Shown piece by piece: positions 23,190 to 45,670 of a stretch of DNA of 64,000 nt. The stretch's first letter is position 1; each line of letters begins with the position of its first letter. The position numbers were made by a program, and so were the translations under genes. Origin of the DNA: Pohlia nutans (lineage: Eukaryota > Streptophyta > Bryopsida > Bryales > Mniaceae); assembly GCA_022496805.1 (NCBI GenBank), contig CM040093.1, positions 5,396,501-5,460,500 of the forward strand. Direction: 5' to 3'. Below the pieces are notes generated by a model. That model saw nothing but the letters and a program-made list of their open reading frames with translations, did not search any database and was not told the origin of the DNA.

Positions 23190-23446
23190 TATTGAAGGTA
23201 GTAGAAGATTGCACAAGGCACACACAAACACAAGGAATGCGTAGAAAGAGATGATCTTTACTCAAAGGCCTTCCACTTTAAGTAGTGTACACTTAGGAGG
23301 TCACCATGGCGAACCATATGGGATAACCCATCACAAGGACACTCTAGAGATCAGCCTATCCCTAACCCCTCCTCCCACACACCATTATTTAGCACCCAAA
23401 CCTCTTTGGCTTCTAGCAATACTACCCTACATCGTTTACCTCAATA
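23190..23446 (-). repeat. Copia 5' LTR
   Basis: 257 bp, nearly identical to the 3' LTR at 17459-17715; only a few substitutions are visible (for example TCTTTATTC versus TCTTTACTC), indicating a young insertion. Confidence 0.9.
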
Positions 23447-24047
23447 ACGTTGGCTTTCTGGTCCTTAATGTCCTGCAAAATATCGTACTCATCTACCCGG
23501 ATTTTGGGATCTGGTTGGAAAATAACCAGTTGATCATCAAACCGGACTTTCCGTAGATTCGGGGCGTCACCCGGATCCACTAATTGCTGCCTGACTTCTT
23601 GGCTAATATCTCTATCTATTCTACTAGGTCCTACTCCTTTTTCTAACTCTACTGTGGGTACAGCATCTACAGGAACTCGGACAGTTACAGGTGAGTCACT
23701 CTCCGAATCCGGTTCCTTTCTAGGTTTTCGGCTACTCCGGCTATTCTTCTTCCTACGTCTAGAGCTAGCACTGACCTTTTCTTTGGTGGAACTACGGGTC
23801 ACCACTTTATTCACCGCAATGTCCTCCCTTCCCGGTAGCCCCACCTCACCATGTCATTTTTCCGGATTCTCCACTCCGGACGTGTGGACGTAGTTAAGCC
23901 CGGTCTGTTCTCAGGGTGGAACCTCCACTGTTTTGAACAACACTCGTGGTTGAGGTGGTTCCGGGCATTGAGTCGTAGTGTGCCCGTACTTCCCACAGTT
24001 CTGGCAAGGTAGCTGTAACATCCCGCCCTGTTGTGAAGACGGCAGTA
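23447..24047 (-). pseudogene. Family-B Gag distal part, third zinc knuckle
   Basis: Minus-strand frame continuing gag from 45671 across the 21.6-kb insertion. It carries a CCHC knuckle CQNCGKYGHTTTQC (about 23975-24015), then a basic Ser/Arg/Lys-rich stretch (SSRRRKKNSRSSRK) and an acidic linker toward the protease. Two in-frame TGA codons (about 23860-23920) break it. The 24040-24047 bases CGGCAGTA form the left 8-bp target duplication of the hAT-type insertion. Confidence 0.8.
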
Positions 24048-24061
24048 CAGGGTTGTCACTT

Positions 24062-24330
24062 CGGACGTCTTTGGACCAAAACGCGTCCGATTTGACGTCC
24101 GGACGCCAGCGTCCGAACGGCCGGACGTAGCGTCCGCTGGATAAATCCCGATTTACTTTATCCGCTGCCGTTTTTTACCCTCGCGGACGGCGTAGCGGAC
24201 GGCTTGGCGTATGTCCGTCCGGACGGACGGAGTTTGTGGGCGGACGGCGAAGCGAAAGGCCTGGCGGACGGCGGAGCGGACGACCGGGCTGGCGGGCGGA
24301 CGGCACGCGGACAACTAGAGGACGGCCAGG
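24062..24330. repeat. CGTCCG/CGGACG cluster, left subterminal
   Basis: Dense CGTCCG and CGGACG hexamers in both orientations immediately inside the left inverted repeat. A matching cluster occurs just inside the right end. Subterminal repeats of this kind are where hAT transposases usually bind, so a transposase-binding role is inferred. 24331-24720 is AT-rich without a gene and probably holds the transposase 3' untranslated region. Confidence 0.75.
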
Positions 24331-24722
24331 CCGGTTTAGGAGTTATGAAGGACTAAACCCTCAACACTTCAGGCCGTTCTAGGGTGATTGTAATGGTGGA
24401 AAATACAAATTAAAATCTCACTAAGTCACTGGGGCCCTCTTTGTATTAAAAATATAGCGACCTTGTTTAACGGGATAAAGCCCCACTCGTTCCAATAATA
24501 TAAAACATAAAAATAGTTGTATATATTATATTTCGCAAGTAAACAAACATACATAAAAGGGAACGTCAGCAGAATATTGCCATCTATTCATGTATGCCAT
24601 ACATATTACTATACAAATATATACTTATAAAATTTATTTCCTGTCCAAACAACTACAATTACTGAATACTAGAATATCTTATAAAAAATACTCTATGAAA
24701 ATACAGAAATGCTATTGAGTTT

Positions 24723-25388
24723 TCAATCTACTATGTAATCAGAATCTCCTTTCACCTCTGCTCCGCTACTGTCCTCTGGATCATATGACTCGTCGTCACT
24801 GTTAGAGTAATACTCGTTTCCCTTTGTCTCCTAGTATGCTGGTCGGATACTCTTCATTTTCCGCGTGGATCCACTTGCGTCAAGGGGGGTTTTAACTCGC
24901 TGTCGTGGCTTTGGCGGAGAAGCAGCAAATGGTTCCATGAGCCTTTTTCGTTTAGCGTTGCCGTTTGCTGTTGGGCCAAATTTCTCTCCACTTGATGATA
25001 TATGTTTCGGGCCCACAAGTGTCTCCTTCACCGTTCTCTTCTCCATTGGGCGTTGATTGTGCCTTGGGGGCACACCTGAAGGCTTTTTTATTATAGCTAC
25101 TGATAAAGGCAAATTTCCGTCACTTTCCAAATCTGCATCCGATTCTCTCACAAGTTTATTCCCTGCTTTGGAAAGGGATACCAATGCCATTGAAGATGCA
25201 AGTGGAACTCTGGGTGTTGGTGTTTTAGATTTATCAAATAAGGCTCTAGATGCAAGGGTGGTCCTCTGCATTTGGTCTTCACCACGAGGAGAATCTCTCT
25301 CTACAAACTTCAACGGACTCTTACTAATTGGACCAAAATCTTCCTCTATGCCTTTCCATTTGGCGTGACCATTGTGACTTCTTCTCAT
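24723..25388 (-). CDS. Probable frame-shifted C-terminal tail of the hAT transposase
   Basis: Overlaps the end of the transposase frame in another phase. Basic and Ser/Pro-rich (KRKRLMEPF, KPRQRVKTP), then after an in-frame TAG at 24831-24833 comes an acidic tail (SDDESYDPEDSSGAE) that ends at TGA 24723-24725. The composition after the TAG is clearly protein-like. It could be a C-terminal extension joined by a frameshift, or by an intron I cannot place. Confidence 0.5.
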
Positions 25389-27372
25389 CTTTTCTCTTTG
25401 CCTTTGCGAGGAGCTTCGAATTTGTGTACACGTACACTAAATCTTCAGCCCTCTTTTGTTGGAGGCGATTCCGAGACCCGTTGTGCACGAAAGAATAACT
25501 ACTCCAATTGCATTCGCATGATGACGATGACACGGTTTGGGCTAGGATTCTCCGTGCTATTGGTGCAATGAGCTTTCCGCATGCCCCTTCAAAATCCCAC
25601 CATGCATGAGGCAAACACTTCTGTTGTTTCGGATCCAACATATTGTGGAAGGGCGGTTCCTTGTGACGGAATGCCAAAAACTCTAGTACCACATCCGGAT
25701 ATGTTTCTGGAGAATATAATTTCCCAAGCACACGCTTGCATGCTGTGATGGCATCTAAGTCGTCTGCCAATTCCTTATCGTGTAGCAAATACGGATTCAA
25801 AAGTGCACCCGCATCGTGCAAATCTGTTCTGACCAATGCCCATCGGTCGTGGAAGTGCTTCTCCACATCAATGCTTTCTCCACCGTCAAAGGTAAAGAAC
25901 TCATCCTTCACCCTTTCAATGTGTTTCTCTACATTGCAAAAGATGTGTCGAATTTTGCCCATACCAGGTTCCCCACTGTCAAAATCCCGTAGTGCATACA
26001 TCAACGGTGCAACCACCTCCTGAAAGTTAGTGCATCGTTGCCAAAAGTGATCGTCCAGTATGTACCTTCTCACATCTCCAGACATAGTGCGCGCTTTAAT
26101 CTTTCTGTTGTCTCGGAGTGTGACGACATAAGACGTCCACTGTTCGTCCACCACAGACTACTCTAAGGCTTGTCTGACTTCGAGTAATCGATCCACCATC
26201 ATGAAATTTGATCCAAATCTAGTTTTCCCTGCCAATACTAGGCTGTACTTCTTCTCGTGCTTTCGAAATACTGCAAGAGGCATGTGTCTCTTCTTTATAA
26301 ACGTCACGATCGTCCGGGCCTTCTTCAACACATGAGTTATCGACTTTGCCTTCGCGATGTCCCCCAATAAGAGGTTCATTGCATGAACAGCACACCCTTG
26401 GAAGTATATGTGGTCATATTTGTTCGTCACAATATCTGCTGCTGCCTTCATGACAGATGCGTTGTCCGTTGCATTTTGCACCACGTTCTGCAATCCAACG
26501 TCTTCAACGAACTTCTCTATGATTGACGCTTGGTACGCTGCTGTCTTCGAATGTCCCGAAGTGTCTACCGATCCAAGAAAATGTTCTCCTACCGCAGACA
26601 CTATCATTGCATTGAATAACGGTTGGTTTGTGCACGAGCTCCATCCATCAAATGTCAACGTGGCTCCAAACTTGCGATCGCTATCTGCCATTTTACCTTC
26701 CAAGACCGCCCCTAGCTCATTCTTGGCTTGCACCAAGAGTTTCTTCCGTAAGTCATTGTAAGAGGGTGGTGTGTACGGTCCCCGGAAATCAGAAGTCCTC
26801 TGTATGGCCTCTTTGAAAGTTGGATTTCGTGCTATCGAAAAAGGGATGTTCGCCTCATAAAAGAACCTTGCCCATATCTTGTCTAACTCCCTTCGTTTCT
26901 CTTCCTGAAAACCCTCTGGTATTCCTGCTTGTCGCAATGGACGGTCGGCCCTGCCAGATGCGCTGTCACGTCCCATGGATGGTGGTCTGCTCGCGGTAGT
27001 TTTGTTTGTATTAGAACCTGACCTCTGATTTGAAATCTCTTGTGGTGCATCGCGTGACTCTCGATCCATTGATTGCAGTGTGCAAAGCTCCATGATGTCC
27101 ATATTTCCCGCTCTCGGAGTGCGACATTCATCGGATTGATCTGGATTTGGATGCTTTAGAGGATCTCCTTTGCAATTAAGAAAGAGCCCTTTAACTTGCG
27201 GTGTAAGTCTCTTGCATATACCTATGCCACTGTCACGGTTTCCTGATGCGTTCCGGTATCCAAGGTGACTCAACATCCTCCCGGCCTTCTTTGCAAAAAG
27301 TGATGCACATAATAAGCACTTCACTTTTCCTCTAGCTATATCCACATACCAATCTTCCCAATCGCTTGGCAT
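25324..27372 (-). CDS. BED-type hAT transposase with one in-frame TAG
   Basis: About 680 codons. Residues 1-60 hold a BED zinc-finger-like region (WVD..., VKCLLCASLFAKKAGRMLSHLG); the middle resembles DUF659/hAT catalytic sequence (TLTFDGWSSCTNQP, NATDNASVMKAA, GCAVHAMNLLLGDI). The C-terminal dimerisation domain is recognisable by AHAWWDFEGACGKLIAPIARRIL-like sequence and SSSSCECNWSSYSF. The only break is TAG at 26158-26160, with no shift of frame. It would mobilise the surrounding element by binding its ends. It is transcribed leftward, away from the CGTCCG cluster at 27.7 kb. Confidence 0.85.
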
Positions 27373-27582
27373 CTTGAAAGGTTCAAAAGGGTTTAGGTTC
27401 CGCTACCCAATAGTTTTAAGTGACGGTGTGCAATACCTCGTGATCGTGTGACGAAAAAATGTATCATGTATGTCAAATACAGTAGTTATCAAATTCCAAA
27501 CGGAATGTGACAACCGCGCATTCAAACTCGGTAATGGTCAAGCAAGGGATACCAAAAGGTTGCCCAAAGCCCTTGACAACTG

Positions 27583-27604
27583 GTGAGTTCGAATGAACTC
27601 ACCA
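27583..27604. repeat. Perfect 9-bp inverted repeat
   Basis: GGTGAGTTC, loop GAAT, GAACTCACC; one further A-T pair extends it. It lies upstream of the transposase gene and beside the CGTCCG cluster. It could be a protein-binding site or a hairpin. Confidence 0.8.
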
Positions 27605-27659
27605 AAAGAAAACCTAAATGATTTATACTACCATCCGGCAAACTAGCCGTTGAAGTAGC

Positions 27660-28160
27660 CGTTGAACAAGCGGACTGCACTGGTCGTCCGCTGTGCCGTT
27701 CGCTGTGCCGTCCACCGGTCGTCCGCTGTGCCGTTTGCCGTCCACTGTGCCATCCACTGGTCGTCCGCTGTGCCGTCTGCCGTCCGTTGTGCCGTCTGTC
27801 GTCCGCTATGCCGTCCGATATGCCGTCCGCGCGTGTTGGGCTGGATCGGACGCACTGGAAAGGACGCACCGGATCGGACGGGGTCCATCAGACGGCAGAA
27901 ACGGACGGACTGCATCGGACGGCAGAAACGCACGGGCTGCATCGGACGCACCAGAACGGCTGACGCATTAGGGTTTTGAGTTTAGAATCGGCCAGACGGC
28001 CGCCGACGCCCCATCGGACGGCGATGATCGGACGGACAGTGCGGTCTGGACGACAGATCGGACGGCAGTTTAGTATCGGACGGGCGGACGGCTGGTTCGG
28101 GCGGACGGGCTGGTTCGGGCGGGAGGACGCGGACGGCATTATAGAAGGCCCGTCCGTCTC
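27660..28160. promoter_or_regulatory. Divergent CGTCCG cluster between transposase and cargo gene 1
   Basis: From 27660 to about 27835 the motif appears mainly as CGTCCG with a repeated GTCCGCTGTGCCGT unit. From 27840 to 28130 it appears mainly as CGGACG. The switch in orientation lies between a leftward gene (transposase, start 27372) and a rightward gene (start 28534), which suggests a bidirectional control region. A weak TATA-like ATTATAGAAG occurs near 28137. Confidence 0.6.
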
Positions 28161-28254
28161 CATTTGTCCTCACTTCTCACTCCTAAAATCAGGTTGCTGG
28201 TAATTCCCTTTGCTGGACTTCCTGGCCTTATTTACTACAGGCGTGAGAGGTCAT

Positions 28255-28295
28255 ATGCTTACTGTGACCAATCACCGGTTGGTCACAATAAGCAT
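28255..28295. repeat. 17-bp inverted repeat (hairpin)
   Basis: Arms ATGCTTACTGTGACCAA and TTGGTCACAATAAGCAT pair at 16 of 17 positions around a 7-bp loop. Downstream (28300-28520) are degenerate units containing TTCACATT and CACGG before the start of cargo gene 1. Either a leader structure or a regulatory array. Confidence 0.75.
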
Positions 28296-28533
28296 CTTAC
28301 ACACTTTATTCACATTGTAGCGGTATTTTCACATGGACGGGCCATTCACATTACAGCGGTTTTTTTACTGAGACGGTTCTTTCACATTCTCGCTGGATTT
28401 TTACGCATACGGTTGATTCACATTTTCGCGGGATTTAATCACGGTTTAGGGTACATGATTGATTCACCTCGTCGCGAGATTTCGTCACGGTAAATCGGTA
28501 ATTGCACACGGTTTATTCACACATCGCAAAGCA

Positions 28534-31500
28534 ATGGCCGATGACCAACGTGAGGGTCAGGTTCCCGACCAACCCCACTCTCCGAATGCTAATGCTGGGC
28601 CTAGGAAGAACAAGCCTAAGGGGGCCCCTCATGCGTCGAATTACGACGTATTGGACGACCCAAATGTTCTAGCCGAACCAGGATGGGAACAATTTAAGGA
28701 AGAATATTGGTCTGCCACGACAGCCAGACAATATATCAAACTGTACCACATTGGTAAACTGTGGCCGAGGGAACAATTACCACAGATGTCAAAATCCTTT
28801 ACTACCAAACCATGACTGTGCAGTGATGATCATTTCCTTCACCGAGCGGAAGATGTATGGAGGGCAATGTTTGGAGCTCGTTTGAAGTCAAAAGGAACAT
28901 TCAACTACAATATACTGGCAATGGTCTATGCGGAACTAAGGTTGGAGCGCAAGGTGGATTGGAGTACTTACTCTGCAACTCAAGGGTATCCAAGTCAGTT
29001 GGCAGACGGGCAGCGAGACATTCCTGATTCGTATGATCCGGCATCTACAAGCACAAAAGAGATGTTGGTCTCTTTAAAGAAACCAGGCACGTCGACTGCG
29101 AGCAGCTCAGGTCGAGTGGAAGTCAAACGAAAGAAGTCTAAACTACCAGTACTACCTACGGCCGCTTTGGAGAATTTGGATGCAAAGGTGGAAACCAAAG
29201 TCAATGCTGAACGGGAGGAAATAAAAGTCAAAGTTGAATGGGACTTACAAGACAAAGTCGAAGATATTGCAACTTCCCCGTCTCGATCGATTCCGTGTAA
29301 GGAGGGCGAGGAACTGTTGCCGCAAAACCCATCGACGCTAATTCAGGCAACTGCGGAATCAAAGGGGAAACAAAAGTTGAGGTCAGATGCAATTGCCAGG
29401 GAGGACCGCCAAGAACAGTATAAGTTTGGATCGAACTGGGTGATGACGGTTCAGGGGGGAAATGTCGGTCCAAGCAATCTAAGTTCCTCGACTCCGAACA
29501 AGAAAAGCGCATGTCCAGATGACACGGATACACTAATTCGGGATCCAAATGGACGTTGGGAAAACTGCGATACTTCTTTGTCAAAGATGATACCTCTTGA
29601 GGAAATAATGATTTCATACAGGCACTTGGCGGAGAAAGTTACCAAGGCGAGCGAAATTGCAGAAGGAGAGCAGTAGGAACTGTCCGACAAGTTCCCTGAC
29701 TTGGCAAGTGATCTAGGTTCGTTGAAACTTATTTCGAAGAACGTGTACGTGAACTAGGTAAAAGCCATGGACGTAACTTCTTTCCTTCATACGTTGGCAC
29801 CACAGCTTGCACAACATCTCCAATCAATTGTGAAAAAATTGGGCCGTTGGGGCCAGTCATCGAAAAGGCGAATCGTGTTGATGAGCTCACCAAGAAACTG
29901 AAAGAAACAACGGAATGTGCAAAGGGATCTGAACAGTTGGCGGGGGAAACCCTAAAGCAACTGCGATCGAGCGCTATACATAACCATCTCAAGACCATGC
30001 ATCTCCAGTTCATTAATTTTCAGTTGTTAGAAGAGTTAGACAAGCTGCGAGAAGAAACTACAAAGAAAGAAGCATTACCTTAAGAATCCCTCGTCCCATC
30101 GGAGCAGATCTCTATTCCATTGAATGCGAACGTTTCAGACGGAGCAGTACTTGAAGAAACTCTTGCCCCATCGGACCAGTTGTCTCATCCATTGGATGCG
30201 CAGGTTTTAGACGGAGCAGTACTTGAAGAAACTCTTGCCCCATCGGACCAGTTGTCTCATCCATTGGATGCGCAGGTTTTAGACGGAGCAGTACTTGAAG
30301 AAACTCTTGCCCCATCGGACCAGTTGTCTCTTCCATTGGATGCGCAGGTTTTAGACGGAGCAGTACTTGAAGAAACTCTTGCCCCATCGGACCAATTGTC
30401 TCTTCCATTTGATGCCCATACTTCGGACGAAACAGTGGTTCAAGATACTCTCGCTCCATTGGACCAGTTGCCCCTTCCCTTGGATGCCCAAACTTCGGAC
30501 GAAACAGTGGTTGAAAATACTCTCGCTCCATCGGACCAGTTGCCCAATCCTTTGGATGCCCAAACTTCCGACAGTGACCTCCACGATCAGCACGATCCTT
30601 CGTATTTGATAAAGCGTCCAGGTGTAGCGGAGGTATTTGTGGAACAAGATAGGATGCAAAAAGAACCTTGGAGAGGGCCACCAACTAAAGCGGGTGAAAC
30701 CAGTAACTCTGAGATCGAGACGTTGAGACAACGATTGATTCAAGCAGAGATTGACAGGGATATAGCGAGGTATGAATTACTATTCTGGAAAGGTACCGGT
30801 GAAATGAAGATGCCCAGACCACGTCCTGAGCAAAGCTTGCCTTGGTTGAGTTATGTCCACCAATTAAAGGATGTGGATGAATTGGTCGAGAGGGAGTTGG
30901 GTTTGATGATCGAGTACGAGGACAAAAAAAATGGGAATCTCGCTTGTCTTCTAGGAATGATGAGGAGGGTGCAAGAATTATTTGATCGACAAGCCGCATT
31001 GCCTGGAGCGCGTACACTGACTACATGTACCACGTGGGGTGATGTTGACTTGATGATGACACGGGCACATGAGATTTCTTGTTATTTGGAAGCAGGCAAC
31101 ATGGACTGGGCTTCGGCATTTGAAGAAGGGTGGATGCCATATAACGTGTTTTCCTCGCATTTATTGGAGAAGGAGAAGACGGTGGTTCATACATGTAATC
31201 CAGCTCCCGACTTTCTGAAAGAGACATGTTGCTTGTGTCAATATGGGTTTAGTCCAGAAGGAGCGATCCAACTGGGACAATGTCAGCATACATTTCATAT
31301 TAAGTGCATTGCGGAACATTCTTTACACCGCTCTTATTGTCCCCTGTACAATTCTCCTATACATGTAAGATTCTACGAAATGATGGGCCTTCGCGCTGTT
31401 ATGCCATCTGGTCATGAATACAACCAGTGGAACCTTCCTCTGGACCAACTACCGAAGAAGTTTCTAAATTACAAATACTGGGATCAACCATTGGTATGGG

Positions 31501-32105
31501 ATGTTAACTACGACTGCCACCACTTGTACCATATGCAAGTAGCAGGGTCTGAGGAAGAAATTTGTATGGAGGTTGACGAACTTTTCTGGATGACCCGAGA
31601 TTACAACATCGAAGTGCGAGCACGTGCAATTGAGAACGAGGCGGACCGGGAGGTGTTTTGCCGCAACTTTGAGGGACATTGGAGCGTACAGCACAAAAAG
31701 TTCTTTCGATTCCCAAAGAATGAAGTAAAAAAGAGAGATGATAACACGTGGTACGAGGCTTCCGGTCTTGTCTTGAGAGAAGAACACGCAACGTACGACC
31801 GTACGTTGATTGGCAGAGCTCTGGTCCTTTCAAAGTTGGAGGAGGCGACTAGGCTTCGTGCCACAACGATCGAAGACATGTTCATTGATGAGGATAATTC
31901 CTATGCGGATGTTGCAGGTGCATTTAATAGGAGGATCAATGACGTCATCGAAACGTGGCGATGTCATATGTTGACACCGAACTGGTCAACAACATCTGGA
32001 GAAACTGAGCAAATTGTAACTCTTGTTGTCGGTCGTGTGGAGAAATACATGGAGGTTTTTAAGGCAAAAGAGGTGGATCTGGATCGTTCTCGCAAGGGGA
32101 AATGA
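28534..32105 (+). CDS. Cargo gene 1: novel N-terminal domain, 24-residue repeats, RING finger
   Basis: ATG at 28534. Residues 1-140 form a domain shared with cargo gene 2 (DPNxxAEPGW, KLWPR, DDHF, VDWST). Then come a disordered region, a coiled coil (29850-30080), six 24-residue repeats (30138-30570) and, near 31225-31350, a RING-H2-like finger: CCLC...CQHTFHIKC...CPLY. The eighth ligand is Tyr (TAC) instead of Cys, one G-to-A change from TGC. A conserved-looking C-terminal region follows. Breaks: TGA 28813, TAG 29674, a frame change near 29720 and TAA 30081. After TGA 32103 coding-like sequence persists to TGA near 32281. By the RING it could act as an E3 ubiquitin ligase; the damage suggests a decaying copy or unseen introns. 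Confidence 0.65.
30138..30590 (+). repeat. 72-bp in-frame tandem repeat
   Basis: About six copies with exact 72-bp spacing (30138, 30210, 30282, 30354, 30426, 30498), encoding variants of DGAVLEETLAPSDQLSHPLD. The first three are almost identical in DNA, so expansion is recent; later copies have diverged to DETVV...TLAPSDQLP. Confidence 0.9.
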
Positions 32106-32281
32106 AAGGCCGACGAGGATGACAATTGGGAACCATCTCAAGACCACGTTGAAAAGAAGCTTGCGATAAATTCAGAGGTTGAGGCAGGCGGTAGAATTAC
32201 TCATGATAGTCAGCGTAGACGTACTCGCTCGATGAAGATTGATATCGCATCACTGTTTTTTAGCCATTTGGCTACTATATG

Positions 32282-33261
32282 AATATATATAACTCTATTC
32301 ACATTTCCATTCTTGTTGACCTTAATTTTCACACTCGGTTTTATTTCACTTCTATCTTTATACTTTTTGCAAAACTCATAATAATAGAGAATTCGCATTA
32401 CATAATTTTAATTTGAAGGGCTCCCATAAATGCAATTTATTTTTTATCGTGATAAAATTTTAAAAAGAAAATGGGACAGCAGTGTAGGCATTTAGAGGTT
32501 TACTTAGTCAAATTAGCAGATCACACGAGGTAATGAAGGAAGAACTCTTCCTCCAAGCAAACTTCTTTCAATCCCCCCGTCCGACCTGTCCGCACCCCGA
32601 TCTGCCGTCCGGACCTCGCCGTCCGCTGCTCGCCGTCCGGTCCGGAGCCCCGAAATGTCGTCCGCTGCACGCTGTCCGATCCGCCGTTCGATTTGTCCGT
32701 TTGGACCGCCCACAGTTAGATCCTATAAAGTTGTCCAACTTAACAACTTCCCAAAACGGAATAAATGCAATGAGGAATCCAATGATTGTGATTAAGTGAG
32801 CCAAAGAATCCTATTAACCCGTACATGCCTAGAGCCCTCTCCAAATTCGGCAGTTTTGCAAAGATGCATTATAAAATGCAACCTAGAGGGATATTTGGAA
32901 CTTGATAAATGAATAAAAGTTGTACATTATGAATTTTACATTCTATCCATACGGTTAGATCTATGATTACTATTACCAATAATTTTGCATAAAATTTGAA
33001 ACGTGAAATTCAAAATTATTTTGTAATTCAATTACGAATAAGATATTGACAATCTACAGATGAAATTTTTTGTGATTGATTGAACTGTAATACTCTAAAT
33101 GTAGTGATTTTTGGAGATGTTTTGGTTGCTTAATTTTATGAGTTGACTTTTTTTTAAATTGAATGTTGGTATGGTGAAATCACTACAATTTGCATACTTG
33201 AAATATCACATTGGACGATTTATAATTTTTCATTGATAGTCATCAACACTATGAAGGTATG
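32282..33261. other. AT-rich non-coding stretch with a short CGTCCG cluster
   Basis: No gene visible. A CGTCCG cluster occupies about 32575-32715; the rest is AT-rich with no recognisable feature. Confidence 0.6.
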
Positions 33262-33680
33262 ACAAAAAATTCAACATGATTGGAAGATATAATTTGAATA
33301 TTTACAAATTGTATTATGTAAACAAGATAAAATTTCAAAATAAATATATTTTTGTCAAATTTAATATCAAATTTTATATTTAAGGTAGATAAAAGTTACA
33401 TTCACAAGTAGTAAAAATATGAAAGCGAAAGATCTAAAAGAGTCCTATGATTGGAGCATTTGTAGAAAGCCCTCTGTATTTAGGACACTCCAATTTCAAA
33501 TTTCTCAACGTTGGAAAAACTTCAATAGATTTTCTACTTTCCAATCCCAACGGTCAAAATATGTATCATAACTTAACTTAAACATCTAACGAAAACACCA
33601 ACTACAAAAAAGCTAAAACACTTGATTTTAAGGACGTTGGACCAAAAATCAAGCATGCTATGGTTGATTGGGCACTTAGG
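33262..33680. repeat. Inverted repeat arm matching 44430-45380
   Basis: Segments such as TTGTCAAATTTAATATCAAA and CCAATCCCAACGGTCAAAATATG occur here in one orientation and at 44.4-45.4 kb in the reverse complement. The right copy has about 520 bp extra in its middle. Together they bracket 33.7-44.4 kb inside the hAT-type element. Non-coding. Confidence 0.7.
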
Positions 33681-34363: not shown

Positions 34364-34427
<64 letters not shown>

Positions 34428-36120
34428 CGACCATTTATAGATGTATATATTTATATATACACATACATGCATGCACATACGCATACACAAACATTTATTT
34501 ATATGTATGTAAATATAAACGTACATACATGTGCATTCAATATGTTCAATTGTAATTTAATTTCATATATACTATTCATATGAACATGCATACAATAGGT
34601 TCAAATCTAATTTAATATCAAGTTTTCCCCTCTAACTAGGTTTATAAAATATAAATTATAACATATGTTTTTGTGATAATTTGTTTCTGCAAATTGGCGT
34701 GGTCTTTCTCTCTGAAATTATGATTGTGATTCCATTGAATGAAGTTGATCTATTAGGTTCGAAGTAATGTATGCATAAAAAATTGCTAACTCTTATGGAA
34801 TTCAAATTGGAACCCATTGCTTCATTATTTTGCCTTTATATTTGAATCTCTTGCCTATTTATTCAATTGGTAAGTAATTATAAGTGTAGTTATGAAATTG
34901 GCCAAAAGTGGGAGGGAGAATGAACAAAAGAGGAAAGGGAGAAGGGCATGGTAGGGGGGGGGGGAGGGAGAAGGGGGCGGAGTTAGCTAACAATGAAGAG
35001 GTAAGAGACATCATGAATGAGGTAGGACGAACCGCTCTCCTAGTAGTGAAGCACTACTAGAATTCAATGCGAAACACAATAAATGTTGGAACATTCTTTG
35101 ACCGTACTCATAATACGCCTCGAAGTACGTGAGGATTCTTGAAGTGCGTGTAGACCCAAGGAGTTGGGTTGGAGGAGGAGGAAGGGAGAGCAATGGAAGT
35201 TTGGAACACCAAAACCCATGGGCTGCTGCCTCTCGCCGTCCGCGGACGGCCCGTCCGATTCTGCCGTCCGATCCGCGTCCGACTGCCGTCCGCCTGCCGT
35301 CCGCCCCTGTCCGTCCGTCTGCCGTCCGATCCGATGGTTTCGTCCGATGGATCCTGTCCGTCCGATCCTATCTGTCCGTCCGTCCGATTGCTCATGCGTA
35401 CATCCATCACATACGGCGACCTTGTACAAAAATTAAAATTATGTGATTGTTCATGGTCCATTGTAATATGAATTCCTTCAAATATTTCACTTTTATAATT
35501 TGGAAAAGTTCAGTTACTATTAGATACTACTTAGCACTTTAGGACTAATTGGAAACATACAATTTCCTGCATGTATAAACTTTAATTAAAAAATTTAACC
35601 AATCCCAAAAGTAAAATGGATATAAAAGTGTATATTCATTGTTGTCAAAGGCAACATTAAACCAACATTAAAACTAGCATAACAAATAGAAGTTGTGATG
35701 TATAATTTGTATATCCCATCTATATGACTGAATATCGTCAAATCCATTTGAATTAATTATAAATTAAGACAGATAGAAGTAGTTTGATTGATCACAGGAC
35801 TTCTCCGCCAATGCTTAACGTTTTCAATTTCCTTGATAACAAATAAGATCATATTTTGTGATTTTGTCCACAGAATATTATCCGTCCAATCGCACATGTG
35901 TACACAATATATTTATATCGTGGACATGTAAATCTATATAAACATAGAAATACATGAGCATACATATATACATGTGTATATATATATATATATATATGTA
36001 TATGTATATGTATATGTATGTATGTATGTATCTACATGTATGTATATGTAAATATGTGGGTGGATATTTGTATGTACATATACATGCAAGCAGTTACGAA
36101 TATACATGCACTACAAACAT

Positions 36121-36440
36121 GTCTTCCACGATGTTGTACCATCATGCAAATGGCATGGCACATGTGTTTTATATTACCAATGGGCATATATTATTATTCC
36201 AAGTTTATTAGAGATGATAATATGCCTTCCACGATGTTGCACCATCATCCAAATGGCATGGCACATGTGTTTTATATTACCAATGGGCATATACTATTAT
36301 TCCAAGTTTATTAGAGATGATAATATGCCTTCCACGATGTTGCACCATCATCCAAATGGCATGGCACATGTGTTTTATATTACCAATGGGCATATATTAT
36401 TATTCCAAGTTTATTAGTGATGATAATATGCCTTTCACGA
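36121..36440. repeat. 103-bp tandem repeat, three full copies
   Basis: Starts at 36121, 36224 and 36327 with a partial fourth at 36430; each contains CTTCCACGATGTTG and GGCATGGCACATGTG. Copies are nearly identical, so the expansion is recent. Found only in copy 2 of the larger duplication. Confidence 0.9.
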
Positions 36441-36864
36441 TTTATGAAATTCGAAGTGGAATCCATTGCTTGAATGTTTTGCCTATTTATTCAATTGATA
36501 AGTAATTACAAGTCAAGTCATGAAATTGGGCAAAAGTGGGAGGGAGAATGAACAATGGAGGAAAGGGAGAAGGGCAAGGTGGGGGGGGGGGGGGGAGGGG
36601 GCGGAGTTAGCTAACAATGGAGAGGTAAGAGACATCATGAATGAGGTAGGATGGACCGCTCTCCTAGTAGTGAATATGCCTTCTAGAATTCAATGCGAAG
36701 CACAATAAATGTTGGAACATTCTTTTACCGTACTCATAATAGGCCTCGAAGTACGTGAGGATTCTTGAAGTGCGTGTAGACCCAAGGAGTTGGAGGAGGA
36801 GGAGGAAGGGAGAGCAATGGAAGTATGGAACACCAAAACACAATAAATCCCATGGACTGTTGCC

Positions 36865-37130
36865 CCACGCCGTCCGCGGGCGGCCCGTCCGGTTCTGCTG
36901 TCCGCATTGCCGTCCGCCCCTGTCCGTGCGATCGTGCGCCCCTGGCCGTCCGATTGGAGGGTCGATACGTACGGCTGGCAATTGGCCGTCCGATGCGACT
37001 GTCCGCACCTATGCCGTCCGATGGAATTGATCTGGGCCGTCCGATCAATCATGCGTCCGCAGTACGCTTCGTCCGCTCTAGGCGGACAGTATAAAGGGCG
37101 GATGGCCATCTTCGTCCGCTCAGAGAGGCG
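36865..37130 (+). promoter_or_regulatory. CGTCCG cluster and TATA box upstream of cargo gene 2
   Basis: About 20 CGTCCG/CGGACG-like hexamers followed by TATAAAG at 37090-37096, roughly 200 bp before the ATG at 37294. The arrangement repeats that of the kinase-like gene (TATATAAT at 41900), suggesting that the clusters act as promoter elements. Confidence 0.6.
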
Positions 37131-37293
37131 GTGAGCATGGTGATGTTCCGACAGCACCTGCACCGACTCTGTCACATGTTTTTTGAGTCACTGCGTCACG
37201 TTGTACGCACGTTTGACTTCATTTCAGGACGTTTGCAGCACGTTGCGCTTCTACCTTCCACACGGTTTCTCAGCGTTGTTTTGACTTCCCACG

Positions 37294-38378
37294 ATGTTTC
37301 AGCGAAGCAAAAGTAGTAGGAGATCTTCACAAGGGACTCCTCAAGTTATGAACTGGGATCAAGTCGTTGACCCCAATTAAGTTGCGGAGCCGGGATGGGA
37401 CACTGAGCCTACGAGAACATGCAGTTGTAAAACATGCAAAGAATACGTGAAGATGACGCATTTAGCCAAGATTTGGCCACGAACTCAAATGCAAGTGTCT
37501 GGCCCTCGTTGGGAAGGTCCAACTGCGACGTGCCAAAGCGACCATTTCCGACAACGGTATTGGGAGGTGCACGATTTCGTTGGGTTGCCTAACTCAAAGC
37601 CAACCATCATGAAATATTCCTTAATGACAATGGTTTGGGCTGAGATTGTATAGCACAAGGATGTGGATTGGAGTACGGTGCCTGGGAAAAACGTTGAACG
37701 TTTGAATCGTTCACAAAACTTTATTCCTACCAACTGGACTGGACCGAGTGATTGTGTGCCGCAATGGTCTAATCGTCTTGCGAATGCGACAAACGTTGTT
37801 GTACCTGATGATGACACCTCGCAATGGGAAGTACGTCCACGCAATACATATCGGCAACACGACGTTGAGAACTATCCCGTGACGTTCGGAACTCCTGCTC
37901 AGCATGACTATGAAAATCATCAAGGAACTTCACGTCCAGTAGGCAGGGGTGATCAAAGGGGAGTTAGCCATGGCTACGATGATAATGCATACGCTGTACA
38001 CAATAATGAACGGGTTCCGTATCCGCCAGATACAGTACCCCGCGAGCATATTCTCCCGAGAGGACCCACAACGATCTTGGACATCATGGGTTTCAAAGCC
38101 ATCCTCCTATTTATTCTGGCCCCGGCGAAAGCTCAGCAAGCGGTGCACCCATGAGTTTTGGTAGGGATATGTATAGTGCTGTAGACGGCCCCCCTGACGG
38201 ATTTGCTGCTGGGCCATCGAGTCAGTATGATCGAGATGATGAGTACGAAAGAGATCTTCAAGAAGCGATAAGACGGAGCGAAGAGGAAGAGAATGAAAGG
38301 CGACTGATAGATCAATGTTTTTTTGAGCAACAATGGGACGCGGAACGTGGGACATTTCGGGGACATCGACAATATTAG
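37294..38378 (+). CDS. Cargo gene 2: paralogue of cargo gene 1 N-terminus with UIM-like C-terminus
   Basis: ATG 37294 starts MFQRSKSSRRSSQG. The first 130 codons share DPNxxAEPGW, KxWPR, SDHF and VDWST spacing with cargo gene 1. A polar disordered region follows. After a frame change near 38065 the last 75 codons include ERDLQEAIRRSEEEEN, which fits the ubiquitin-interacting motif pattern (acidic, L-x-x-A-x-x-x-S). In-frame TAA 37378-37380 and TAG 37651-37653 interrupt it. No RING. Function unknown; link to ubiquitin is inferred from the motif only. Confidence 0.55.
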
Positions 38379-38602
38379 GCGGATTTAACAAGACTGTCTA
38401 TGCTCCAGTGGAAGTTCAAACCTAGCCTAGACCGTAGAATCCAATGTCTTCAATTTTGCTTTGTATAGACCAAGACATGTCCTTAGTTTGAATTTTGTTT
38501 GGATGCTACAAACTTTGGATATATTGTAGGCTGCTAGCGCTAATGCTCTAGGCTTATAAAGCATGTATGGCTCATTGTGTGAACATTATTAGCACAAATA
38601 TT

Positions 38603-38634
<32 letters not shown>

Positions 38635-38649
38635 TAATCTAATCACGAA
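38379..38649. other. Non-coding spacer with (TA)n microsatellite
   Basis: Downstream of cargo gene 2; a perfect TA repeat at about 38600-38630. No gene seen. Confidence 0.7.
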
Positions 38650-40430
38650 GAGTAAACTGGTCATGAGTACATAATCCATTCTTATTTCCATTAATAAGAG
38701 ATCGAGTTCATGACTTACAAAAAGATTTATAAATTGTCTTGGTGTCGCCTTGACTTTTATAGTAGACCTTACATACCCGGTTGAAAACAAAATGAGTTTA
38801 GTTCACATGCAATGGAAGGGCTAGAAGTTTATCTTAGAACTTGGTTGTGCATAGCACAGTTGACTTTCCAAGAAGGACTCCCATCACATTCTCATTTCCT
38901 ACTCCTTTTATAACTACCTTGTGCAACAAAAACCTCCTTCACGAATAAAGTTATTTATGAAAAACATCTTGTCTCACTATCCTGAGAAGTTCATGGCGGC
39001 GAACGAACCACCAAAAGTGCACTTTATTGAACCCCTCTTTATGTTAGGTCCTTGCTACACACTCTCCACTTGAATTAAATGGCTTCCCGTATTTACTTTT
39101 GGCCGAACACTTTCTTTGAACCGTCTTCATCATCGAACAACCTCATGAGCTTCTGTGCTTCAAGTGCAGTTCGGCAACATCAGAGCTTCGAAAAAGACCA
39201 TCGTGAAGATCGTAATGAACACCTTTGAAGTACATACTCTCGTAGCTTGAGATTCAACTTGCCTAAACACTACACTTTAGTCCCGATTGAATCACTAGAG
39301 AGGGTTCGATAGTATCATAGTACTACATTCTAATCTAACTTTAGACACCGAGTCCCGTAACACCCTAAACCCTACTAGTGTTAGTGTCCCATTGAGAATT
39401 TGGAACGATACAGAAAGCATTGCCATGTGTAGTCAAAGGGTGTAGTACTATGGTAGGGTGTAGTACTGTGGTACTATCATGGTGCATGAGGGAGGACTAG
39501 GCACCACTAAGGCTTGGATGAAGTCTATGAGGAAGGTATTAAAGTGTCAATCTTGCGGCATGGCACTTGGAATGAGGTTGTCACTTCATCTTGACGCCTC
39601 ATGCTAGAAGAGGCTTAGAAACCCTAGAATGTTCATATTTGTCTAGTGGGGCCTTTGGAAAGTGACTTGGTGAGTGTGTGAGAGACTAGCTCGGTTCTAG
39701 CGACTACAGCCCTTTTCACAGGCGGAAAGACAAAGCATGCGTCGACAAAGCAGGGGGCAAATGGGCAATACCCTCTCTAGCGTTTCAATCGAGATTAAAG
39801 TTTAGGATAGGCAAAGTGGATCTCAAGTTATGAGAGTATGCACTTCAAAGGTGTGCGTTCCGATCTTCACGATTGTGTTTTTCTGAGATTTGGTATTGCG
39901 AACAGCACTTAGAGCACAGAAGCTCGTGAGGTTGTTTGATGATGAAGAGGGTTTGAAGAAAGTGTTGGGCTAAAGGTATGTATGGGAAGCCACATGATTC
40001 AAGTGGGGAGTATGTAATGTGGAACAAATATGAAGAGGGGTTGAAGAATGTGCACTTTTGGTAGTTCAATTGTCCTATTGAACTTCTTATTATAGTGAAG
40101 CAAGATTTTTTTTCAGAATTAACCCTATTCGTGATGGACGTTTTCATTGTACAAGGTAGTTATGGAAGGGGAGGAAATGAGAATGCGGTGGGAGTCCTTC
40201 TTGGAAAGGCCTTTGTGCTATGCACCACCAAGTTATAGGATCAGCTCAGACCCTCCCAATTGCATTAAGGGTAAAGTGAACTCATTTCGTTGTCAACCAT
40301 GTATGGAAGGTCCGATAAAAGAACGGAGAGAACATCAATGAAATTGATATATCTTTTAATGAGACACGAACTTAATCAATGACCAATGGAAATAACGCTT
40401 GATTAGGTACTTAATGAGGTTTACAATTTG
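38650..40430. repeat. Foldback structure: about 660-bp inverted arms
   Basis: Arm 1 (about 38650-39315) is the imperfect reverse complement of arm 2 (about 39765-40430): for example CCAAGAAGGACTCCCATCAC against GTGGGAGTCCTTCTTGG, and ATCGTGAAGATCGTAATGAAC against GTTCCGATCTTCACGAT. The spacer (39316-39764) holds no ORF. It could be a foldback or MITE-like insertion, or a source of hairpin RNA. Short ORFs in the arms lack motifs. Confidence 0.75.
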
Positions 40431-41739
40431 CGAGACGGATTTTTCAATATTATGTTGAGTTATTGCACGGCGCGGATCTTTGAAAACAAGATGTGGTTCT
40501 TGGAAAAAAACAATAGAAATTGACGGAAGTCAATTTTTTTTATAACTCATAAGAGTGAGAGCTTATTTCCAATTCTTTCATACTTGTGTATAAAAAAAAC
40601 CGAGCTTATAAATAAGTACGCCCACTTTAGCTAGAAAAAGACGGCCATATAATTAATGAACTCCACCCTTTCTATAAACCCTACAATTTCATGGCACTTT
40701 GCCGGAGAGAAGGGGATGGTTGTTAAATATTTAGTGCCTATGATTACTCAGTGGCGGACGAGGCCGTGTATATCACATTAGTGATCACACGTGCTCTACT
40801 AATATCGAACTTTGGTCTCAAAGTCTTGACATATAGTCATAATTAACCCCTAAATTTTTGAGCGACCATATTCTGGTCGTTCCACTTTTTGGGCAGCCTC
40901 CAGGGACCTCATACTTTTAAAATTTTCAATGAGAATTTCAGTGTAGCTTTCAAAAAGTACACTCTACATGTCGCACTTTGTTTCATGTCATTCCGATAAG
41001 TATTGCAAAAGTTATAAGCATTTGAAGTTTTTGAAGCGAGATCGGGCAGCAAATTTTTTGTTTATTTTTTACTCTTTTTCAAAATTTCTTTTTTGATTCA
41101 TGATTGGTTGATCTTTATCTACAAATGTAGCTTTAAATCTACCCATTTTGAGCAATGGGATAAAAGTTATGAGGAGATCTGTTTTTTGGGCAGTTTGGAC
41201 AAAAAAAATCTTTGAAGCTCATTTCTAAACTCAATTTTCAATATGTTTTAATGAAATACAAGGCACTAGGTATAGATTTCCAAGTACAACATTTTCACCG
41301 TTAAGATTGACATTTTACAATTCCATGTCAAAGTTATTAATGATTTTCTTTTTCCTTTCACTTTGTACCCACTTCTAGTAATTGTTTTATGAAAAAATTA
41401 ATATGAGCTTTTTTCTTACAAGATTTTATATTTGAAGACTTAACTGAATTGTTAACATGGCCTTGCCATTCATTGAATTTCTAACCCATTCAAAAAAAAG
41501 ATATTAATTTCAAAAGTTCAAATTTGTCACCGGATTGAACCCCAAAAAATCTTCTTTTGCAACTTTGATCCTTATAATCTAAGAATCTAATGGTCATTTT
41601 GCTCTCAAATTTTGTGCTCACATGAAAATTCAAGTTGGGTATTAGATCTTACGGTTGAATGATGAAAAAACAAAAAAACATATGATTTCTTCTTCAACTT
41701 CCAAATGCTGCTTTTTTCATGGTTTTTTGTGAGAATACG
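40431..41739. other. AT-rich non-coding stretch
   Basis: No gene, RNA or repeat recognised. Many short poly-A and poly-T runs. Confidence 0.5.
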
Positions 41740-41935
41740 GTCGTCCGATCTGGGGGCTGTCCGATCTGCGGTCCGATGTGCGGGCCGTCTGATCTGTACC
41801 ATCTGATTCAGGGGCGGACTGCGCAACCCGTCCGATCGGGTGGCGGACGGCGCGGGCCGTTCGATCGGGTGTCCGATCTAATCGGACAGCACGTCCGCCT
41901 ATATAATCGTCCGCCCAGAGCGGACGGCTCACTTT
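41740..41935 (+). promoter_or_regulatory. CGTCCG cluster and TATA box upstream of the kinase-like gene
   Basis: Several GTCCGATC and CGGACGG motifs, then TATATAAT at 41900-41907, about 190 bp before the ATG at 42094. Confidence 0.6.
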
Positions 41936-42093
41936 TTCCTCCCTACTCACATTATTGTGAGAGTAGTTAGGGGTTGCTGTTGGCAGGGTTATTCCATCCT
42001 CTGGCCCCTCACTCAGGGAGGAAGAAGTCAGCGTTGTCGGGGGGGGGGGGTATATTTTGCCATTTTTTTTTACAATTCTGGAGCTCCGTCACC

Positions 42094-43587
42094 ATGCCGA
42101 AGGGAAAAAAACAGAAGACAGGTAAGAAGACGGAACAAAAATCTCTTGAAGATGACCTTCACATGCCGTCGGAAGCGTGTTAGAAGTTTCTGCAGAAGTT
42201 CACGGTGGATTTTTACCGAAGCAACACGCTTATGGCGTTGGAGAGTAAATTTGTTCGGTACAAAGAGCGTAGCGTGGAAAAATTTCAAGAAGACATGACG
42301 AGGAATATGTTGCAGGCTCTTCGGGATGGATTTTGGTACCGGGAGATGGAGAAGCGTGATTTCACAAAGTGGTTGGAGTGGAGGGTGAATGATTGTTCGT
42401 GGAATATCCAGGGAGTATTAACCTAGTATGGGAAGGACCACGGACTGCTTCAGGACAATACGTATATTGAGGAAGTGATGAAAAAAGCAGACGACTTTGT
42501 GCTATTGATGAAACCATACACCCTTAGACGCCAGCGCAGACAACAAATCGGTTGGTGGAGAGACGTTGCCGGTGGATCCGAGGAGTTAATGAAGAATAAG
42601 TTGGTCCACGCATTGCCTGCTACGGCCAATGTCATTGAAGTGGAGCACACATCACTCAAGGGTGCATATGCTACCGTCAAGAGGGTTCGAATTGAAGGAG
42701 CTCCAGGGTTTGAACCTCATTGGGAGTTTGCGGCAAAACTTTCAAAACAGGCAAGGACTAGACCGGATCTTGCGAAATTGGAACACCAAAATGAAACGAT
42801 GGCCGTTCGAATTGAACATCCAGGTGTTATACGATACGTGGCTATTCATGCTTTGAAATATGAGGGTTATGCATATTGGTGGAATGGTGGGACATTGCGA
42901 CAGATGCTGAATTTAGACAACACGTACGGAGACGATATCTACGCGCGTATGTTGCATGCACCTATGTCAGCGGACGATGTGATCAAAGCAAGTTATCTGA
43001 GGCGGTTCCGTAAAAAAAGAACGGAGTTAGCGTGGGCATTGGTGATCATCATGCATGAGGTACACATGACCAACAACCTGCACAATGATTTATCTCCCGA
43101 TAATATCCTTTTTCATTTCCTTGCGGATGAGACGCAGGTATACATCGGGGTATGTGACTGGGGCATGTTATCCTTTTCGACGGAGCCAATGGAATCACTA
43201 TATGGGTACAACAGTACAGAGGAAATGCAGAAGGATCTTGCAGAACGGTGGTGGGTGGATCCTACGATTGCTTATGTACGTAAGCCAGATGCAGATGTGG
43301 AGATACGCCCACCAGTGACGAAGACAACTGAGGCATATGGAGTTGCAAAAATTGCCATGCGCATCAACAAGAAAAACATGTCGGAGGATTACTGGAAGTT
43401 GCAGACGCGTGGAGAAACTTCAGCAGTATATGAACAACAGGATTTGGCAAACGTGTTCGAGAGCTATTTGAATCGATTGTGCAGCACGGATCGAGCAAAT
43501 ATTGGAGGTTTAGCTCATATAGTGACACGTTTTAGGCTTACATACAAGTGGCCAGTACCGTACAAGCATTTTAGAAATGTGTATTAG
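42094..43587 (+). CDS. Cargo gene 3: protein-kinase-like protein, two in-frame TAGs
   Basis: One frame of 498 codons from ATG 42094 to TAG 43585-43587, interrupted only by TAG at 42181 and 42424, with no frameshift. Residues 1-160 are Lys-rich then helical, without known motif. The kinase-like domain follows: glycine loop LKGAYATVKRV, FAAK lysine, HPGVIRYV, hinge GGTLRQML, catalytic loop HNDLSPDNILF (HxDLxxxN with Asn for Arg) and CDWGML in the DFG position. The key Lys, Asp, Asn and metal-binding Asp are present, so activity is possible if the stops are bypassed. It is distant from typical plant receptor kinases. Confidence 0.7.
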
Positions 43588-44429
43588 GCAAAACATAGTG
43601 ATATAGTTCTTTTTGGTTTAGAATAGTAGTAACAGTATTGAATTGTTCTATGGCTATTGCTGTGTGCTTATGCATAGAACACCTAAACTTCTGTCCGACT
43701 ATCAGGAAAATATTTTCTTTTTTGACATTTACGGAAAAAAAAATTCCATATGTTTTATTGTTTTTGGGATTTTGCTATCTCTATGTTCATTGATATAAGT
43801 GGGTTTTGCAGCCATGAGTCCCGGGACTCCAATTTGGAATTTTTTTGCACACATGGGTACCTAACGTTATTAGAATTTAGAAACACCCTCAAATTTCCTT
43901 AATATTTTGGAAAATAATTCTTCCATGTGTTATTGGAATTTTGCTAACTCTATGGTTTTTGACTAGGATTTGCAATCTGTGGATTTGTGTTGACAGTTTG
44001 AATTAAACATACAACACTGTGGACCAATGTATCCAACGGTACAAGTGTTACCATCACACCCTCGTTTACAACTTTGCTTTGTACATCAACTCCATTCCTG
44101 TCTGGCTGTTTTCCAGCACCCATTTGTAAACAACTATTTGAAAACAATGTTGTATTGGCACCTAAACCCCTAAATGCTCTAGCGTTCTACTTGTGGACGA
44201 TATACATAGTTCATCACAAATTACCCTAAACCGTCATGCACTTTTGTAGTGTGGACTTTTTACAGTAAATTCGATGGGAAGTAAGCTTCGCACGTATGTG
44301 CTCCAAATACGAAGGGATGATTTGTGAATTTTTTATGCTCCATTTCATGTTGTAGTGATTCACCCGAATTTTTTTAGATTTTAGGGTAAAAGCTCTTTAG
44401 AATAAGCAAACTCATAATTTTAACCCCTA
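43588..44429. other. Non-coding 3' flank of the kinase-like gene
   Basis: AT-rich; right after the stop the frame reads TAG TAG TAA CAG TAT TGA within 60 bp. No other gene seen. Confidence 0.5.
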
Positions 44430-45380
44430 AAGGACCAATCAACCATATTATGCTTGCTTTTTGGTCAAACGCCCCAAAAATCAAGTGTTTTAACTTTATT
44501 GTAGTTAGTGTTTTTATTAGATGTTTTAGTTAAGTTATGATACATATTTTGACCGTTGGGATTGGAGAATAGACTTCATTTGAAGATTTTCCACCGTCGA
44601 GAAATTTGAATTTTGAGTGTCCATAATACAAAGGGATTTCTAAAGATGCTCCTATCATAGGTCTTTTTTAACCCTTTAACGTCCCAATTCAACACTGTTT
44701 TTAAAGAAGTGTTATAAAATGTTTGATGGAAACCAAAAATGGAGTTGAGGTACAAAGAAAATTTGTAAATGCCAATGTGAAGATCACATTTGTACGGTTA
44801 AATGTATTATATTTTTTATTAATAATTTAAAACTAATTTTGCAAGGTTTTCTCTTGAAATTCAATTAAAAATCCCGAATTAACACAAATAAATTGAAAAT
44901 ATTGGAATGAAATTGGAATAACATCCACTACGCGATGATATGGTTTCCATTATTTGATTCTACTTATTTTGGAAAATCATGTCTCAAGTCTCACTTTTTG
45001 AACTAAGAATGAAACTTGACATAAACCAATTGTGTAATTTTTCCAAAAATCATGATAACCTATTTTGAAGATCCACACCGTACAAAGAATAGTCAACTTA
45101 CACAAGAACCCAAAAAGAAATTGGTGGATGAAAACTGTCCACTTTGGATGGAAATCGAACAGCTTTAATCTGTTTGTCGTCCAATATATGGACGCTGGCG
45201 CGCTAAAGGGTTAATTTATTCACTTTCAATTTTTTACTCCTTGTAAATATAACTTTTATCTACCTTAAATATAATTTTTGATATTAAATTTGACAAAAAT
45301 ATATTTATTTTGAATTTTTCCCTTGTTTACATAATAAAATTTGTAAATATTCAAAATATCTTCAAATCATGTTGAAAACT
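44430..45380. repeat. Inverted repeat arm matching 33262-33680
   Basis: Reverse complement of the left arm in two blocks (44430-44690 and 45215-45380) separated by about 520 bp absent from the left copy. It abuts the right subterminal CGTCCG cluster directly. Non-coding. Confidence 0.7.
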
Positions 45381-45655
45381 GTGATCGGACGTCCACTGAA
45401 CCGTTCGATCGGGTACGCCGTCCGACCTGTCCGCCGTCCGATCTGCCTAAACCGCCGTCCGACCTGTCCGATCTATCCGCCCGTCCGACCTGTCCGTCGT
45501 CCGATCTGTCAAGTCCGCCGTCCGACCTGTCCAGCCGTCCGCTTGGGTAAAACCCCCGTCCGCTGTGCATTTTTCAAAGTCACCGGACGCTGAGACGGGA
45601 ACGTCTACGTCCAGCGGACGTCCGGACGCGAACGTCCGCGTCCCAGCGTCTGAAC
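45380..45655. repeat. CGTCCG cluster, right subterminal
   Basis: Dense CGTCCG hexamers followed by CGGACG-rich sequence ending at the right inverted repeat. It mirrors the left-end cluster at 24062-24330. The apparent gag ORF runs on through this sequence by chance. Confidence 0.75.
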
Positions 45656-45670
45656 AATCCTGCAGCAGTA

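What the first reader, a model, noticed from the sequence alone, without database searches (positions are those of the whole stretch)
24040..45670. A 21.6-kb hAT-type element carrying cargo genes sits inside a Gypsy gag
Excising 24048-45662 with one 8-bp duplication rejoins the gag frame between the second and third zinc knuckles. The ends have hAT-like inverted repeats and an 8-bp target duplication (7 of 8). Inside are a BED/hAT transposase, two related ubiquitin-linked genes and a kinase-like gene. hAT elements are usually a few kilobases; a cargo-bearing one of this size is unusual. It could be one unit that captured genes, or a hAT element enlarged by later insertions.
Basis: partly seen in the sequence, partly recalled or inferred. 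Interest (0 to 1): 0.95.

Follow-up and report, generated by a model that had tools for sequence, protein, structure and literature searches.

The report
Giant four-gene hAT transposon in moss
A 21.6-kb jumping gene in what looks like a moss genome carries, besides its transposase, a RING protein, a related protein and a protein kinase, and copies with the same ends and the same gene order recur across the chromosomes, so the extra genes look like working parts of the element and not accidental baggage.

Summary
Window 24048-45662 is one copy of a repeated hAT element of about 22-24 kb in a 698-Mb assembly, probably a moss. Searches scored 39 other left ends and 39 other right ends, nearly all ending within a few bases of the window's. 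Of 16 copies read at both ends, 10 have perfect 8-bp target duplications, two 7/8, one 6/8, three none. Fetched copies on C16, C9 and C5 are collinear with the window.

Inside are a DUF659/hAT transposase, a RING-H2 protein, a second protein sharing its N-terminal domain, and a divergent kinase. 107 kinase and 90 RING loci were scored; 46 RING-kinase pairs lie 10-18 kb apart in one order. Against a diverged copy, dN/dS is 0.26-0.31 (transposase), 0.35-0.39 (kinase), 0.36-0.38 (second protein), 0.57-0.60 (RING). CGTCCG arrays mark both ends and gene promoters. Two subfamilies occupy disjoint chromosome sets, suggesting two subgenomes.

The window copy is broken in all four genes. That this is one mobile unit is secure; that the extra genes serve the element is likely; anti-silencing through the arrays is my guess at mechanism, untested. 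New variant of a known kind.

The parts
24048..45662 (.). giant hAT element, 21,615 bp
   Evidence: Boundaries recur in other copies; collinear copies
24040..24047 (.). left target-site duplication CGGCAGTA
45663..45670 (.). right target-site duplication CAGCAGTA (7 of 8)
24048..24057 (+). left terminal inverted repeat CAGGGTTGTC
45653..45662 (-). right terminal inverted repeat CAGGATTGTT
24061..24302 (.). CGTCCG array, left end (19 sites)
24726..27372 (-). hAT transposase (DUF659, hAT dimerisation, C-terminal extension); broken here: in-frame stops, 438 bp missing at 25375/25376
27685..28156 (.). CGTCCG array between the divergent transposase and RING genes (29 sites)
28534..32249 (+). RING-H2 protein gene, about 1,215 codons; broken here by stops and indels
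30071..30574 (+). 72-bp tandem repeats inside the RING gene; 9 array sites fall at 30171-30536
32578..32679 (.). CGTCCG array after the RING gene (7 sites)
35237..35387 (.). CGTCCG array (20 sites)
36871..37118 (.). CGTCCG array upstream of the second gene (14 sites)
37294..38368 (+). second protein (359 codons) sharing the RING protein's N-terminal domain; UIM-like motif at its C-terminus; broken here
38665..40411 (.). inverted repeat with arms 38665-39305 and 39770-40411, 77% alike, also present in the C17 copy
41742..41926 (.). CGTCCG array upstream of the kinase (12 sites; 12 in C17, 46 in C9b, 67 in C16)
42094..43587 (+). divergent protein kinase, 497 codons; broken here by two stops
45385..45638 (.). 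CGTCCG array, right end (22 sites)

Best explanation
24048-45662 is a now broken member of a giant hAT family that moves as a unit of about 22-24 kb (shown: ends, target duplications, collinear copies). It carries its own transposase and three accessory genes: a RING-H2 protein, a shorter protein with the same N-terminal domain, and a protein kinase. The accessory genes are kept because copies carrying them spread better (inferred from selection, conserved order and conserved catalytic residues; about 0.8). Most likely mechanism (inferred, about 0.3): one of the proteins with the shared N-terminal domain, or the transposase, binds the CGTCCG arrays at the ends and promoters, and the RING and kinase activities act there on host silencing or repair proteins to keep the element expressed and mobile. 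In design this resembles the VANC anti-silencing system of VANDAL elements; ancestry is not implied.
For: 10 of 16 copies read at both ends have 8/8 TSDs, two 7/8. Copies on C16, C9 and C5 are collinear with the window, main blocks 91-97%, end blocks 83-92%. 46 RING-kinase pairs in one order at 10-18 kb against 0.085 expected. Seven of nine further copies with good TSDs span a listed kinase and/or RING locus. dN/dS against the diverged C17 copy: transposase 0.26-0.31, kinase 0.35-0.39, second gene 0.36-0.38, RING 0.57-0.60. Kinase catalytic residues kept in 35-36 of 36 aligned relatives. Five pairs of hits from other sources share exact contig length and a source. CGTCCG/CGGACG 89 sites against a shuffled mean of 4.85.
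Against: Nothing tests expression, binding or silencing. All C17 comparisons share one branch, and RING at 0.57-0.60 is weak. Ratios within subfamily A reach 0.83 and most fetched copies have stops. Three of 16 copies lack a TSD; C13 is rearranged, C20 has no recognisable left TIR. One copy with a perfect TSD is only 16.3 kb and spans no listed cargo gene, and a 21.8-kb one also spans none: cargo may not be needed. The C6 stretch fetched holds only the kinase and right end. An own-genome transposase search did not complete. Shared contigs are inferred from lengths.
Confidence: 0.8

Rival explanations
1. A normal small hAT enlarged at this place by later, independent insertions.
For: Single copies do hold insertions: a Copia in C5, about 9 kb in C17. 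Some non-coding interior stretches recur in inverted form within the element.
Against: The whole gene set and its order recur between the same ends on many chromosomes with perfect TSDs.
Confidence: 0.02
2. A hAT that captured host genes, Pack-style, which ride along without helping the element.
For: 16.3-kb and 21.8-kb copies with perfect TSDs span no listed cargo gene. RING dN/dS is only 0.57-0.60.
Against: Whole genes, dN/dS below 1 for each, same order in both subfamilies, apparent linkage in other sources. Host donor genes were not searched for separately.
Confidence: 0.1
3. The genes help the host moss, and the element is kept for that (Starship-like cargo).
For: 37 of 58 B and 20 of 49 A kinase segments have no stop.
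Against: High copy number with many decayed copies suits element-level selection better.
Confidence: 0.07
4. Segmental duplication of one locus, not transposition.
For: A few neighbouring pairs, such as the two C17 loci near 25.88 and 25.97 Mb, may be local duplicates.
Against: Homology stops at the TIRs and the copies read have different target sites.
Confidence: 0.01

Closest known systems
hAT superfamily DNA transposons (Ac, Tam3 and kin)
   Same: hAT dimerisation domain, 8-bp TSD, short TIRs starting CAGGG
   Different: About five times the usual few kilobases (recalled) and three conserved extra genes
VANDAL elements of Arabidopsis with VANC (PMC5735166, passages seen)
   Same: Accessory genes beside a transposase; a short motif in arrays in non-coding parts whose number varies between copies
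   Different: VANDALs are Mutator-like (recalled); the proteins here are RING, kinase and an unnamed domain; no binding or demethylation is shown
Giant KDZ, EnSpm and Sola-1 elements of Ectocarpus (PMC12477816, passages seen)
   Same: DNA transposons above 10 kb, up to 30 kb, with accessory genes
   Different: Other superfamilies; no RING-kinase module reported in the passages seen
ToxhAT (PMC12506042, passages seen)
   Same: Large element first called hAT, with cargo
   Different: TA duplication and 74-bp TIR; its authors move it to Tc1/mariner
hAT7 of rust fungi (PMC12730594, abstract and section 3.1.2 seen)
   Same: hAT element with an added enzyme gene thought to counter silencing
   Different: 7-bp TSD, one added gene (TET/JBP dioxygenase), fungal host

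Membership tests
hAT superfamily | 8-bp target-site duplication | tested here: met
   10 of 16 copies 8/8, 2 of 16 7/8, 1 of 16 6/8, 3 of 16 none
hAT superfamily | Short terminal inverted repeats | tested here: met
   CAGGGTTGTC / CAGGATTGTT in the window; CAGGGTTGTT at the right end of C5, C16 and C9b
hAT superfamily | Transposase with hAT dimerisation domain | tested here: met
   Dimer_Tnp_hAT 37.6 bits, cut-off 21.4, in the C17 copy; 33.2 in the window
hAT superfamily | BED zinc finger and DDE residues | tested here: inconclusive
   Conserved Cys/His and Asp/Glu positions among 29 relatives; BED not a Pfam hit; assignment to DDE recalled
VANDAL/VANC-type anti-silencing system | Accessory protein binds a motif array and lowers methylation | not testable with these tools
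   Arrays present; no binding or methylation data
RING-type E3 ligase (RING protein) | RING domain above family cut-off | tested here: met
   zf-RING_2 35.3 bits in P0123 and 30.3 in P0127, cut-off 27.3; 25.3, below cut-off, in the window copy. Ligase activity not testable
Protein kinase (kinase gene) | Catalytic Lys, Asp, Asn and metal-binding Asp | tested here: met
   36/36, 36/36, 36/36, 35/36 relatives; Pfam weak, just above one cut-off in P0026 only
UIM (second protein) | Ubiquitin-interacting motif profile | tested here: inconclusive
   No Pfam family at E 0.1; motif read by eye against a recalled consensus
Pack-type captured-gene transposon | Fragments of identifiable host genes | tested here: inconclusive
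   Whole genes with dN/dS below 1; host donors were not searched for separately

The most novel reading that the evidence does not exclude
Mosses host an old lineage of giant autonomous hAT transposons with a four-gene system of their own. Two related element proteins (one a RING E3), a kinase and the transposase act on CGTCCG arrays at the ends and promoters to overcome host silencing: a convergent counterpart of VANDAL/VANC that works through ubiquitin and phosphorylation. It multiplied to at least a hundred copies, separately in two subgenomes.
Probability: 0.3. Interest if true: 0.9.

Novelty: new variant of a known kind. Interest (0 to 1): 0.78.

Why it matters
It shows a hAT element above 20 kb that moves as a unit with conserved accessory genes, in a superfamily usually thought small and whose well-known large 'member' ToxhAT has been reclassified. 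It gives a concrete system, with a motif to test for binding, for how a plant transposon might use ubiquitin and kinase activity against its host. The two subfamilies also mark two chromosome sets, a ready tool for telling apart the subgenomes of what may be an allopolyploid moss.

Full report
What was claimed and whether it is there. The ends, the 7-of-8 duplication and the gag interruption are in the sequence. With the flanks joined in a script and one duplication kept, one gag frame runs across the junction between the second and third zinc knuckles; a stop follows about 40 codons on. Uninterrupted gag copies elsewhere were not searched for.

Is it a unit? The left 200 bp was scored at 40 places in the window's own genome, its own included (312 candidates): of the 39 others, 25 matches start at exactly 24048 and 38 within 5 bases. 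The right 200 bp was scored at 40 places (277 candidates): of the 39 others, 26 stop at exactly 45662 and 37 within 3 bases. I fetched 40 kb at five of these places. C16 (23,354 bp) and C9b (23,913 bp) are collinear with the window element, main blocks about 91-96%, end blocks 83-93%. C5 is the same with a Copia insertion near the right end. C17 is a diverged copy (68-88% by block, about 9 kb extra). C13 is rearranged, with a left end on both sides. Target duplications: C5 and C16 8/8, window 7/8, C9b 6/8, C13 and C17 none. Ten more end pairs, made by hand from the hit lists: eight 8/8, C9a 7/8, C20 without a recognisable left TIR. Over the 16 copies: 10 perfect, 2 with 7/8, 1 with 6/8, 3 none. 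The nine new pairs with good duplications measure 16.3, 21.8, 22.2, 23.4, 23.8, 29.8, 31.4, 31.7 and 43.0 kb. Seven of the nine span a listed kinase and/or RING locus; the 16.3-kb and 21.8-kb ones do not.

The genes. (a) Transposase, minus strand: DUF659 and hAT dimerisation domains. In C17 it is open for 1,034 codons. The window copy has in-frame stops and lacks 438 bp found in C16, C5 and C9b. (b) RING gene, plus strand, divergent from the transposase, about 1,215 codons. Ten relatives of 912-1,249 aa were found at 36-47% identity over 31-57% of the query (only the 7,992 candidates sharing most words were scored). Those aligned have a conserved N-terminal domain, a RING-H2 and a conserved stretch after it. 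(c) A 359-codon gene whose first 150 residues align with the RING protein's N-terminal domain (32% identity; 29 columns invariant over 8 rows), ending in a UIM-like motif (read by eye against a recalled consensus; Pfam gives nothing). (d) A kinase of 497 codons with 125 relatives (120 listed). In 36 aligned ones the catalytic Lys, Asp and Asn are 36/36 and the metal Asp 35/36. Two relatives (47% and 43% identity) are named as Ceratodon purpureus; one stands for 126 sequences and its tag (VG) I read as the V chromosome. That is why I call the organism a moss (inference).

Selection. Counted by Nei-Gojobori on blastn alignments to one reference each, gapped and stop codons left out. Against C17: transposase 0.26-0.31, kinase 0.35-0.39, second gene 0.36-0.38, RING 0.57-0.60. 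All these share one branch. Kinase of the C6 copy against subfamily A copies: 0.45-0.57. Within subfamily A: 0.34-0.83 over the four genes, leaving out the near-identical halves of C13, as expected of decaying copies. The window copy has stops in all four genes.

Genome-wide. The kinase segment gave 107 scored loci of 600 candidates: 49 at 91-100% and 58 at 84-86%. RING gave 90 of 575: 38 at 87-100% and 52 at 83-85%. In each search the two classes share no chromosome: A on C1, 4, 5, 8, 9, 12, 13, 16, 17, 20 (and 21 for RING), B on C2, 3, 6, 7, 10, 11, 14, 15, 18, 19, 23 (and 22 for RING). Shuffled kinase labels gave no disjoint split in 20,000 trials; the fewest shared was 10. The simplest reading is two subgenomes whose progenitors each had their own subfamily; host genes were not tested, and unscored copies could blur this. 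46 RING-to-kinase pairs lie in one order 10-18 kb apart (27 A, 19 B; medians 12,677 and 12,431), against 0.085 with kinase places drawn at random over 25 Mb. No stop in the kinase segment: 20 of 49 A, 37 of 58 B. The own-genome transposase search did not complete, so its pairing with RING is known only from the fetched copies.

Other organisms. Five pairs of hits share exact contig length and a source: kinase P0020 with transposase P0133 (27,639 bp), P0082 with P0165 (15,563), P0073 with P0178 (6,480); RING P0122 with transposase P0135 (8,444), P0126 with P0149 (7,321). If each is one contig, the linkage holds down to about 30-40% protein identity. I could not read those contigs.

Arrays. CGTCCG/CGGACG occurs 89 times in the window element against a mean of 4.85 in 200 shuffles (maximum 11). 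With GTCCGA/TCGGAC, 132 of 138 sites fall in eight clusters: both ends, between transposase and RING, in the RING 72-bp repeats, after RING, two before the second gene, one before the kinase. C16 and C9b have eight such clusters too, C17 seven; the number of sites before the kinase is 12 (window, C17), 46 (C9b) and 67 (C16). A short motif in tandem arrays in non-coding parts, varying between copies, is what PMC5735166 reports for VANC targets (passages seen).

How it works, and how sure. Shown: one mobile unit, its ends and its gene set. Supported: selection on the genes. Likely (about 0.8): the accessory genes serve the element. Guess (about 0.3): they act through the arrays against host silencing. 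No binding, expression or methylation data were available.

Known or new. Giant DNA transposons with accessory genes are known in KDZ, EnSpm and Sola-1 (PMC12477816, passages). A review of giant transposons has no occurrence of 'hAT' in its main text (PMC6431247, term search). ToxhAT was moved out of hAT (PMC12506042, passages). Rust hAT7 elements carry a TET/JBP gene (PMC12730594, abstract and one section). Literature searches (two returned nothing) listed no paper that I recognised by title or abstract as a giant hAT with RING and kinase genes; the library lacks most subscription journals. I rate it a new variant of a known kind.

Noticed in passing
Chromosome sets of G000: Subfamilies A and B of the element lie on disjoint chromosome sets, as in an allopolyploid with two subgenomes.
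   Followed up: partly
38665-39305 and 39770-40411: A 640-bp inverted repeat (77% between arms) between the second gene and the kinase is kept at 78-79% in the diverged C17 copy; role unknown.
   Followed up: partly
G000 C13:17026646-17055765 (L029-L031): A copy with left ends on both sides and near-identical inverted halves (transposase dS 0.0015): an aberrant transposition product or an assembly error.
   Followed up: partly
17459-23446: A Copia element with 257-bp end repeats 98% alike lies beside the hAT in the same region; a similar Copia sits inside the C5 copy of the hAT.
   Followed up: no
L041:7845-9440: An uninterrupted 532-aa frame that reads by eye like pyruvate kinase, left of a B-type kinase copy; not searched.
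   Followed up: no
51593-51997 and 57626-58028: A further pair of direct repeats, 97% and 88% alike in two parts, probably long terminal repeats of another retroelement.
   Followed up: no
P0016 and P0184: A kinase and a transposase relative are both filed under a 'Bacilli bacterium' MAG, probably moss DNA binned by mistake.
   Followed up: no
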